Assembly: GCA_001784475.1 (NCBI GenBank)
Contig: MFRE01000022.1
Span: 1 to 44,233 of the forward strand
Origin: Candidatus Magasanikbacteria bacterium RIFOXYD2_FULL_41_14
Lineage (GTDB): Bacteria > Patescibacteriota > Patescibacteriia > Magasanikbacterales > GWA2-37-8
DNA: 44,233 nt
Direction of reading: 5' to 3'
The translations under genes and the position numbers were made by a program. The notes below the pieces were generated by a model. The model worked only from the letters and a program-made list of their open reading frames with translations, was not told the DNA's origin and did no database searches. Below are positions 39,889 to 43,687 of this stretch, one piece after another. Positions within the stretch are counted from its first letter, which is position 1; each line of letters opens with the position of its first letter.

Positions 39889-40058
39889 GTGCCCCCGGAG
39901 AGGATCGGCTTTGACTCAAATTTTCTTCCAAAAATTTGGTCTAGCCACCGCCTCCCGATCGCGCGGCGTCAGTTCGGCCGCGCGATATCGGTCCGGCGTT
40001 CGATCCTCTCGGTCGCAACCAAATTAAAACAATCCACATAAGTGGATTGTTTTAATTT
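39889..40058 (-). other. tRNA-3'-end-associated structured element (Arg-TCG copy)
   Basis: minus strand: hairpin, gagaggatcgaacgccgg (antisense T-arm), GC hairpin, AAATTTT hairpin, direct copy gatcctctccgggggcac. Confidence 0.65.
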
Positions 40059-40059
40059 G

Positions 40060-40131
40060 TGCCCCCAGAGAGGATCGAACTCCCATCTTCAGGTTCGAAG
40101 CCTGATGTCCTATCCATTGAACGACGAGGGC
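40060..40131 (-). tRNA. tRNA-Arg(TCG)
   Basis: GCCCTCGTCGTTCAATGGATAGGACATCAGGCTTCGAACCTGAAGATGGGAGTTCGATCCTCTCTGGGGGCA; loop CTTCGAA. Confidence 0.9.
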
Positions 40132-40163
40132 ATTGTTAAATAAATTGTTTTTTGTTATTTGCA

Positions 40164-40236
40164 CCTATCCACTCCGACGCTTCTCTCGCGAGAAGGTTGG
40201 AGCCCCGACCTTGCGTCGGGGTTGAACGACAGGGGT
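40164..40236 (-). other. 5'-half copy of tRNA-Arg(TCG) split in the D-loop by two hairpins
   Basis: minus: GTCGTTCAA-[CCCCGACGCAAGGTCGGGG CTCCAACCTTCTCGCGAGAGAAGCGTCGGAG]-TGGATAGG vs tRNA GTCGTTCAATGGATAGG. Confidence 0.6.
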
Positions 40237-40272: not shown

Positions 40273-40345
40273 TGGGCCGCCAGAGGATCGAACTCTGGAC
40301 CTTATCCTTAAGAGGGATCTGCTCTACCAGCTGAGCTAGCGGCCC
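40273..40345 (-). tRNA. tRNA-Lys(CTT)
   Basis: GGGCCGCTAGCTCAGCTGGTAGAGCAGATCCCTCTTAAGGATAAGGTCCAGAGTTCGATCCTCTGGCGGCCC; loop CTCTTAA. Confidence 0.88.
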
Positions 40346-40399
40346 GTAAGTATTTGTATGTGTGTTAATCTCATCTAACTGAGAGACTTGTGTTTACCA

Positions 40400-40486
40400 T
40401 TTCTCGCCCCGTAGAGAACCAGCGGTTCTTCTACCGGGGAGCTAGCGGCCCGTAAGTATTTGTATTTATGATAATCTCATTTAACC
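40400..40486 (-). other. 5'-half copy of tRNA-Lys plus its upstream sequence, D-loop hairpin insertion
   Basis: gagctagcggcccgtaagtatttgtat at 40333-40359 repeated at 40439-40465; aatctcat[c/t]taac also repeated; hairpin ccccgtagagaaccagcggttcttctaccgggg. Confidence 0.65.
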
Positions 40487-41251
40487 CAGGTCGTTTTTAC
40501 CTCTTTTGATTATAGTGGTCTTTGGCCCTTTCCATCCTTTTACTTTTAATGCAGCTTCGGCCGATTCAGTTTGAGCTTCTTGTTTGCTCGTACCCATTCC
40601 TTCGGCCACTAATTCTTTTTCTAAAAACGCTCCCACAACGAAATTTTTGGCATGATCTGGCCCTTCTTCTTTTAATACCTTATAGGTTGGGGTAATCCCT
40701 AAAATTTCTTGGGCGGATTCTTGAAAGCGACTCTTGGCATCCATGTGTAAATTATTTTCAAAAATGTTTTCAAGTTTTGTTAAAACAAATCGGGCGATAA
40801 ACTGCCGCGAAGCTTCATAACCATGGTCAAGATAAATGGCGCCGTTAAGGGCTTCAAATAAATTCGCCATGATGTAGTCGCGCGCTTTGGTGCCTGCGTC
40901 TTTGGCTTCGCCGTGACTCAAAAATAAATATGGTTCTAAACCAATTTCATAAGCAACCGCCGCTAGAGTATTGGCATTAACAAGCGCGGCGCGCCAATTG
41001 GTGAGTTCGCCCTCGGGATTGCCATATTCATTAAATAGAAATTCAGTCACTACCAATTCTAGCACAGCATCACCCAAGAATTCCAGACGTTCATTGTGCC
41101 CGCAAGGAAAATCCCGGTGTTCATTTAAATATGAACGATGCACAAAGGCCTGGACCAAAAGTTCCGGACGTTTAAATTTTATACCTAAATGCTTCTGTAA
41201 AAGAGCGAATTTGCGTTCTTTGATTTCCGGCAGATTCATTATTTTATTCAT
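40481..41251 (-). CDS. rnc: ribonuclease III
   Basis: HNERLEFLGDAVLELVVTEFLF; C-terminal dsRBD. Confidence 0.95.
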   Translation of the reverse strand: MNKIMNLPEIKERKFALLQKHLGIKFKRPELLVQAFVHRSYLNEHRDFPCGHNERLEFLGDAVLELVVTEFLFNEYGNPEGELTNWRAALVNANTLAAVAYEIGLEPYLFLSHGEAKDAGTKARDYIMANLFEALNGAIYLDHGYEASRQFIARFVLTKLENIFENNLHMDAKSRFQESAQEILGITPTYKVLKEEGPDHAKNFVVGAFLEKELVAEGMGTSKQEAQTESAEAALKVKGWKGPKTTIIKRGKNDLG

Positions 41252-43222: not shown

Positions 43223-43268
43223 GTCCTCGTAGTTTCCGCCAAATGCGGACCCGCCTCGGGCGGGTAAT
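43223..43268 (+). other. 5'-half copy of tRNA-Arg(CCG) split in the D-loop by palindromic hairpin
   Basis: GTCCTCGTAGTTT (identical to tRNA 43356-43368) -[ccgccaaatgcggacccgcctcgggcgggt]- aatg. Confidence 0.65.
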
Positions 43269-43355
43269 GAACCCTGTGCAAGAGCACAGCTCTGTACCGG
43301 GCGAGACCCAGACATAATGAATCCGTAGAATTTAAAAAATTAGTTATTTGACAGT

Positions 43356-43427
43356 GTCCTCGTAGTTTAATGGATAGAATATCTCCCTCCGAAGGAGGTG
43401 ATGCGCGTTCGATTCGCGCCGAGGGCA
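43356..43427 (+). tRNA. tRNA-Arg(CCG)
   Basis: GTCCTCGTAGTTTAATGGATAGAATATCTCCCTCCGAAGGAGGTGATGCGCGTTCGATTCGCGCCGAGGGCA; loop CTCCGAA. Confidence 0.9.
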
Positions 43428-43428
43428 C

Positions 43429-43582
43429 AAAAATATCAGAATTTTCTGATATTTTTATCGGCACGAATCGAACGGGAAAGGGTGAAAACGGGAGTTTTCA
43501 CTCACGGAGGAAAGTCCACGAAAACCCGAAGGTTTTCGTGTGAGGAAAGAATAGACGACGTGAGATTTCGCGCCGAGGGCAC
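43429..43582 (+). other. tRNA-3'-end-associated structured element (Arg-CCG copy, different core)
   Basis: hairpin aaaaatatcagaattttctgatattttt, antisense T-arm cacgaatcgaacg, two strong hairpins, direct copy gatttcgcgccgagggcac (43563-43582). Confidence 0.65.
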
Positions 43583-43687
43583 AAATTGGCATTATTTGTT
43601 TGAGCGGATGATTAGGTTATTAAAATTTGTTATTGACATCCATTTTTTTTACTTCTATAATAGAATATACACTGTATAAATAATAAT

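What the first reader, a model, noticed from the sequence alone, without database searches (positions are those of the whole stretch)
39889..40236. Nested tRNA hypothesis: outer split tRNA halves could pair around the intact tRNA
Outer 5' half (ACCCCTG-TC-GTTCAA..) and outer 3' half (..CTCTC-CGGGGGC-AC) around tRNA-Arg(TCG) can form 6 of 7 acceptor pairs, with C5-G68 and G7-C66 replacing the T.G and G.T of the real tRNA. Hairpins occupy the D-loop, the 3' core occupies the T-loop, and the intact tRNA sits where the anticodon arm would be. The 43223-43582 locus has the same layout. It would be a tRNA-in-tRNA matryoshka precursor or the relic of an insertion that carried a replacement tRNA.
Basis: inference. 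Interest (0 to 1): 0.8.

Follow-up and report, generated by a model that had tools for sequence, protein, structure and literature searches.

The report
Self-guided mobile RNA invading tRNA genes
The 'nested tRNA' is an insertion scar of a tiny non-coding mobile element, found across Patescibacteria next to tRNA genes of all 20 amino-acid types, that carries a built-in guide complementary to the spot where it inserted and leaves the invaded gene intact.

Summary
The repeats are real but are not a matryoshka tRNA. Each locus is an intact tRNA-Arg plus a ~100-130-nt insert: terminator-like hairpin, 'guide' (antisense of that tRNA's T-loop and T-stem 3' strand), covarying multi-hairpin core, then a duplicate of the tRNA 3' end. 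The same core sits beside tRNAs of 20 isotypes, a tmRNA, and twice each at lepA 5' ends and rpsI 3' ends, patchily across Patescibacteria (127 of 155 copies examined follow a tRNA/tmRNA). Insertions show direct repeats of 24-169 bp that begin at one fixed point (tRNA position 56|57 or 58|59) and end variably. Two related genomes differ by the element at one tRNA-Glu. The guide matches its own target across the insertion point: tRNA position 59 pairs in 57/63 versus 20.6 shuffled, replicated 42/52 versus 16.1, and as 13-16-bp helices at lepA and rpsI. It is a gene-less, mobile, structured element with an in-built target complement. How it moves is inferred; guide-directed target-primed reverse transcription fits best, but no enzyme was found. 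The outer 5' halves are a separate event. No Rfam family or paper found describes it.

The parts
43356..43428 (+). intact tRNA-Arg(CCG), the invaded gene; the T-loop insertion point lies between nt 56 and 57-59
   Evidence: ARAGORN/Infernal
43429..43456 (+). A/T-rich palindrome (terminator-like hairpin) between tRNA and element
   Evidence: sequence; fold
43460..43473 (+). guide ('anti-T') GGCACGAATCGAAC, antisense of the resident tRNA's T-loop and T-stem 3' strand
43474..43566 (+). type A core: GGGAAAGG, hairpin A 43482-43501, GAGGAAAG 43507-43514, hairpin B 43518-43541, 3' terminus GACGTGAGAT
   Evidence: R1 hit 43462-43545, 98.7 bits; covariation
43567..43583 (+). outer copy of the tRNA 3' end (T-stem 3' strand + acceptor 3' strand), the displaced/duplicated target
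43223..43235 (+). outer 5' fragment identical to tRNA nt 1-13; a separate event followed by GC hairpins (43236-43265), not part of the element
40059..40131 (-). intact tRNA-Arg(TCG), the invaded gene of the finding
40021..40058 (-). A/T-rich terminator-like hairpin
   Evidence: fold
39998..40010 (-). guide GAGAGGATCGAAC, perfect antisense of GTTCGATCCTCTC (T-loop + T-stem 3' strand)
   Evidence: sequence; same layout
39907..39997 (-). type B core: GCCGGACCGAT, hairpin, CGGGAGGCGGTGGCTAGACC, hairpin, GAGTCAAAGCC
   Evidence: pattern hit 39908-39949, 13 hits in 6 genomes, 0 in reversed control; contexts
39889..39906 (-). outer copy of the tRNA 3' end GATCCTCTCCGGGGGCAC
40160..40236 (-). outer 5' fragment (tRNA nt ~1-26) with GC hairpins in its D-loop; separate duplication event

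Best explanation
Both loci are insertions of a tiny non-coding mobile element (~100-130 nt) into a tRNA T-loop. Shown here: the element is a structured RNA or ssDNA module with two covarying hairpins and conserved joining segments. Its 5' end is a ~10-16-nt segment complementary to its own target across the insertion point. Its 3' terminus abuts a duplicated target segment that starts at that point and runs 24-169 bp downstream, so the invaded gene stays intact. It occurs in many genomes and many targets: tRNA T-loops of all 20 isotypes, tmRNA, lepA, rpsI. Inferred: the 5' segment is a guide in an RNA copy of the element. It pairs with the top strand of the target, the bottom strand is nicked at the insertion point, and the free 3' end primes reverse transcription from the element's 3' terminus, as in target-primed reverse transcription (TPRT). 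A second nick a variable distance downstream gives the long duplication. The universal T-loop GTTCRA would explain why tRNAs are the main target. Enzymes must come from elsewhere, since the element has no gene. The RNA route and the nicking step are not shown.
For: Mobile and patchy: R1 in 26/86 genomes of the order with up to 12 copies, 31/380 of the class, R2 in 33/379 of the phylum. A pattern from the core alone, without the guide, gave 32 loci, 25 of them with a tRNA call beside them. Filled and empty site: tRNA-Glu(TTC) filled in G018, empty in same-genus G023, whose native 3' flank follows the OUTER copy in G018. Direct repeats: L213 169, L097 67, L292 59, L259 58, L284 57, L091 53, L285 50, L289 45, L206 37, L205 37, L070 37, L150 35 bp and more. 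Guide to target: positions 57, 59, 62, 63, 64 exceed all or nearly all shuffles and the signal fades by 68-72, replicated in 52 further loci. Non-tRNA targets: lepA 5' end in two genomes at sites 8 nt apart, each with its own 14- or 16-bp guide match; rpsI 3' end with 13 bp; 0/2000 shuffles reach these. RNA-like structure: hairpins 95.6% paired, covariation score 0.330 versus 0.135, 0/500. Type B core with the same layout beside Leu, Arg, Ser, Pro, Lys, Asp, Ala tRNAs.
Against: No partner enzyme: reverse transcriptase (RVT_1) is as frequent with the element (13/25) as without it (29/58), read; genomes with 6 or more copies (G042, G028) have neither RVT_1 nor Y1 transposase. No expression data. 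R1 and R2 include the guide positions, which biases the census toward T-loop targets (the core-only pattern does not). Some recent insertions have only 5-9 contiguous matched guide nt (L091, L070, L097), so guide direction is not strict, or the match is improved later. Orphan copies (L069, L114, L117) lack a target duplication. The rpsI copy in L293 has only an imperfect guide match.
Confidence: 0.62

Rival explanations
1. The target complement is a product of insertion, not a guide: during insertion or repair the new strand folds back and copies ~10-16 nt of the target in inverted orientation (or later quasi-palindrome correction perfects it). Targeting is set by something else.
For: lepA and rpsI copies carry complements unrelated to the T-loop; several clearly recent insertions have weaker matches than the typical 10-11 nt; terminator palindromes and inverted copies form one long hairpin.
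Against: The acceptor strand is not complemented above background (positions 68-72), whereas simple fold-back copying should include it; other recent insertions have full matches (L205, L284, L283, L289).
Confidence: 0.3
2. A DNA element moved by a trans-acting transposase, such as an IS200/IS605-like or REP-like palindromic element whose hairpins (each preceded by GGAAAG) are bound as single-stranded DNA.
For: Two imperfect palindromes with a similar motif at the 5' foot, small size, many copies.
Against: That family makes no target duplication (established knowledge), while duplications of 24-169 bp are seen; Y1 transposase absent in most genomes with the element.
Confidence: 0.12
3. A host-useful tRNA trailer RNA: guide and outer copy let the tRNA 3' end switch partners, regulating maturation.
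For: Two-state strand exchange is possible wherever guide, inner and outer copies match; the minimum-energy fold of the 40-kb locus uses the resident 5' strand with the outer copy; matches are preserved in old copies.
Against: Patchy presence, absent from the same tRNA in a same-genus genome, also at lepA and rpsI, outer copies decay in places (L036).
Confidence: 0.12
4. A self-splicing intron-like ribozyme: repeat plus element excised as an intron, the guide acting as internal guide sequence pairing with both exons.
For: Guide geometry (about 4 nt of 5' exon, 7 nt of 3' exon) mimics P1/P10 logic; precise excision would restore the gene.
Against: No group I/II match in any element scanned (the one group I hit is a separate intron upstream in L200); the upstream copy already preserves the gene; right junctions vary by 1-2 nt.
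Confidence: 0.08
5. The first reader's nested (matryoshka) tRNA precursor, with outer halves pairing around the inner tRNA.
For: 6 of 7 acceptor pairs possible (sequence); outer halves pair in the predicted fold of the 43-kb locus.
Against: Outer 5' halves absent from more than 90% of loci; the resident tRNA pairs better with the outer 3' copy; at tRNA-Lys the 5' duplication is a separate 66-bp repeat around a GC hairpin.
Confidence: 0.03

Closest known systems
Eukaryotic SINEs and target-primed reverse transcription (LINE-type)
   Same: short, gene-less, structured, multi-copy, variable-length target duplications, one end fixed at the insertion point
   Different: in bacteria; not tRNA-derived but tRNA-invading; carries a target complement; no A-tail; no driver reverse transcriptase found
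IS110/IS621 bridge RNA (PMC11208160)
   Same: an element-encoded structured RNA contains short guides that base-pair with the target
   Different: no recombinase gene in the element; a single guide at the 5' terminus; long target duplications
Group I introns of bacterial tRNA genes (PMC3984707)
   Same: internal guide sequence spanning the insertion site; tRNA genes as hosts; the gene stays functional
   Different: no group I core (Rfam), T-loop rather than anticodon-loop site, duplication instead of splicing to preserve the gene
Integrase-borne islands in tRNA genes
   Same: insert in the tRNA 3' part and leave an intact tRNA plus a displaced 3' fragment
   Different: no integrase, ~110 nt, repeats of variable length that are copies of the target, all isotypes and even lepA/rpsI
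TIGR-Tas guide RNAs, reported from Patescibacteria (PMC12045711)
   Same: host group; short guides in a structured RNA
   Different: no array, no pair of 9-nt spacers; Tas protein not searched for
IS200/IS605-related palindromic repeats (PATE, REP)
   Same: short palindromes, many copies, no gene
   Different: long target duplications and RNA-like covariation; no Y1 transposase correlation

Membership tests
Split/permuted/nested tRNA | outer halves form one tRNA present in a shared precursor | tested here: not met
   outer 5' half present in ~6 of 89 loci only; resident 5' strand is the better partner
Group I intron | conserved catalytic core (Rfam RF00028) | tested here: not met
   no match in element regions; the only hit lies upstream of the element in L200
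IS200/IS605-like or derived palindromes | no target duplication on insertion | tested here: not met
   direct repeats 24-169 bp
IS200/IS605-like or derived palindromes | Y1 transposase in genome | tested here: not met
   PF01797 absent in many element-rich genomes, e.g. G042, G028, G014
tRNA-integrating island (integrase type) | integrase gene and cargo between the repeats | tested here: not met
   repeats ~110 nt apart; no distant second copy of the tRNA end downstream of copies lacking a near outer copy
TPRT retroelement (SINE-like) | variable-length target duplication with one fixed end | tested here: met
TPRT retroelement (SINE-like) | RNA intermediate and a driver reverse transcriptase | tested here: inconclusive
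   RVT_1 does not co-occur with the element; no transcript data
IS110 bridge RNA | IS110 recombinase adjacent, target- and donor-binding loops | not tested
   no dedicated search was run; the element itself (~110 nt) is too short to encode a recombinase
TIGR-Tas | tandem array with paired ~9-nt spacers and a Tas (Nop-domain) protein | tested here: inconclusive
   no array at any locus seen; Tas protein not searched
Known Rfam RNA family | match at gathering threshold | tested here: not met
   only tRNA/rRNA in the window; no core match

The most novel reading that the evidence does not exclude
A previously undescribed class of protein-less mobile genetic element: a ~110-nt RNA that carries its own guide, spreads through Patescibacteria by guide-directed target-primed insertion into conserved sites (tRNA T-loops above all, also lepA and rpsI), and exists in at least two unrelated core types (A and B) that share one architecture.
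Probability: 0.42. Interest if true: 0.96.

Novelty: categorically new. Interest (0 to 1): 0.9.

Why it matters
Bacterial mobile elements with long variable target duplications are not known to me, nor is a gene-less element with its own target guide. If the guide directs insertion, this would be a very small natural RNA-guided insertion system and a bacterial counterpart of SINEs. It would also show how selfish RNA can enter essential single-copy tRNA genes of minimal genomes without killing the host. Every new insertion records guide, target and duplication together, so the mechanism is directly testable by comparative genomics and by reporter assays.

Tried and rejected
Rfam scans of the element at lax thresholds gave only chance microRNA-like hits on long hairpins. 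RNase P resemblance (GAGGAAAGUCC) was considered and dropped: no Rfam match and no other conserved RNase P segment. An RNA intermediate shown by CCA ends was tested: CCA follows the outer copy in 11/58 and the inner tRNA in 10/58, so no signal. Whether the guide follows the inner or the outer copy where they differ: 9 informative sites, undecided. Co-occurrence with RVT_1 or Y1 transposase: none. Phages, plasmids, viral contigs: no match. A long autonomous version: not found. I first took L037 (G001) for an empty tRNA-Arg(CCG) site; it carries scattered remnants (ATCGGCAC, GACGTGAGAT), so I use the tRNA-Glu pair G018/G023 instead. An attC/integron reading and a box C/D reading were considered by eye only and not pursued.

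Full report
What was claimed and what is there. Both are there. The outer 5' strand ACCCCTG and outer 3' strand CGGGGGC of the first locus make 5 Watson-Crick pairs and a G.U of 7. The resident tRNA's own 5' strand pairs 7/7 with the same outer 3' copy, and the unconstrained fold of that locus uses it; in the second locus the outer halves do pair in the fold.

A widespread module. A DNA search of relatives and reading of the loci showed the same core directly 3' of many different tRNA genes. The window belongs to a 1.1-Mb, 28-contig patescibacterial genome; the nearest named relatives with the core are mostly labelled Candidatus Magasanikbacteria. Layout: tRNA - A/T-rich hairpin - guide - GGGAAAGG - hairpin A - GAGGAAAG - hairpin B - GGAG - variable hairpin - GUGA(GAU) - copy of that tRNA's T-stem 3' strand and acceptor 3' strand. 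A covariance model of the core (R1) hit 26 of 86 genomes in the order, with up to 12 copies, 31 of 380 in the class, and 16 of 379 in the phylum; a broader model (R2) hit 33 of 379 in the phylum. Of 109 distinct copies, 87 had a tRNA or tmRNA within 180 nt upstream on the same strand (median gap 50 nt). Eight more from the phylum all follow tRNAs, including tRNA-Ile, as do 32 of 38 others: 127 of 155 in all, and all 20 isotypes. R1 and R2 contain the guide positions, so the census leans toward T-loop targets; the pattern used only the core and still gave 25 of 32 loci with a tRNA call.

Structure. On 34 sequences the two hairpins are 95.6% paired, with 11 of 18 pairs changed on both sides somewhere and a covariation score of 0.330 against 0.135 for shuffles (0 of 500 reach it); slid controls collapse. 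Joining segments are near-invariant. Nothing in Rfam matches the core.

Guide and target. Aligning the antisense segment to the resident tRNA in 63 loci, positions 54-58 pair in 60-63 of 63. The variable position 59 pairs in 57 (20.6 when partners are shuffled), 57 in 60 (43.9), 63 in 46 (27.6), 64 in 28 (14.9); the signal is gone by 70-72, so the acceptor strand is not complemented. In 52 further loci from the class and phylum searches position 59 pairs in 42 (16.1 shuffled) and 63 in 35 (17.3). The outer copy matches its own tRNA at 11.05 of 12 nt against 7.18 shuffled.

Insertion. At many loci the outer copy continues into the native 3' flank as a direct repeat of the segment that begins at one fixed point in the T-loop (56|57, or 58|59): 169 bp in L213, 67 L097, 59 L292, 58 L259, 57 L284, 53 L091, 50 L285, 37 L205 and L070, 35 L150, and shorter ones down to 24. 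The right end varies. Same-genus genomes give a filled and an empty tRNA-Glu(TTC): in G018 the native terminator flank seen in empty G023 follows the outer copy. So the element enters the T-loop and the duplicated segment keeps the tRNA intact.

Targets other than tRNA. L207 follows a tmRNA. L206 (G148) sits at the 5' end of an intact lepA, with a 37-bp repeat covering its first codons and a 14-bp guide match across the insertion point; L289 (G118) sits at another lepA, at a point 8 nt away, with a 45-bp repeat and a 16-bp perfect match. L261 sits at the 3' end of rpsI with a 13-bp perfect match. 0 of 2000 shuffles reach any of these. L293, also at rpsI, has a weak match that the script did not recover. 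The complement therefore belongs to the insertion event and not to T-loops as such.

Second core type. The locus of the finding carries a different core (type B: GCCGGA..., GGCGGTGGCYAGRCC, hairpin, GAGYCRARGCC). A pattern for it gave 13 hits in 6 genomes, none in the reversed control; most follow tRNAs (Leu, Arg, Ser, Pro, Lys, Asp, Ala) with matching antisense segment and outer copy. L031 and L149/L184 carry both types in tandem.

Outer 5' halves. They are not part of the module: copies of the tRNA 5' end of 10 nt or more upstream occur in about 6 of 89 loci, usually followed by a GC-rich hairpin such as TCCGCC...GGCGGA. In the window the neighbouring tRNA-Lys shows the same kind of event clearly: a ~66-bp repeat (leader plus tRNA nt 1-13; 40333-40398 and 40439-40501) around a ~40-nt GC hairpin.

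Mechanism. Shown: mobile, structured, gene-less, one fixed and one variable repeat end, guide complementary to the actual target. Inferred: guide-directed target-primed reverse transcription of an RNA copy. Main rival: the complement is made from the target at insertion, or perfected later; some recent insertions with weak matches (L091, L070, L097) against others with full matches (L205, L283, L284, L289) leave this open. No driver was found: RVT_1 is present in 13 of 25 element-bearing and 29 of 58 element-free genomes (counted), Y1 transposase does not track either, and no longer version with genes was found downstream of copies that lack a near outer copy. No phage, plasmid or viral match.

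Novelty. Paper searches found no description. The held library lacks most subscription journals, so 'not described' is provisional. The nearest logic is that of IS110 bridge RNAs (PMC11208160), group I intron guide sequences (PMC3984707) and SINEs; none fits on the features tested.

Noticed in passing
40333-40398 and 40439-40501: ~66-bp direct repeat (leader + first 13 nt of tRNA-Lys(CTT), minus strand) around a ~40-nt GC-rich hairpin: another small insert in a tRNA gene with a long target duplication, on the 5' (D-arm) side.
   Followed up: partly
43236-43265: GC hairpin CCGCCAAATGCGGACCCGCCTCGGGCGGGT, repeated in this genome and its relatives, with similar hairpins inside tRNA 5' fragments (L102, L204, L144).
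   Followed up: partly
L031, L149/L184: Type A and type B elements in tandem after one tRNA (Pro, Lys), each adding its own tRNA 3'-end copy.
   Followed up: no
L069, L114, L116, L117, L136: Near-identical orphan copies away from tRNAs that carry a piece of the parent tRNA 3' end; left ends differ, most right ends lie at the tRNA 3' end, and no target duplication was seen.
   Followed up: partly
L200 164-388: Group I intron (Rfam, 77.5 bits) just upstream of an element, apparently in a tRNA gene ARAGORN does not call.
   Followed up: no
L094, L104, L115, L124, L146: Variant outer copies with a small hairpin or AGCGAAGCG inserted between T-loop and T-stem strand; the guide could pair around it.
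   Followed up: no
L037 (G001:C8): Same tRNA-Arg(CCG) as at 43 kb, upstream of the same downstream gene, with scattered element remnants, apparently a decayed copy.
   Followed up: partly
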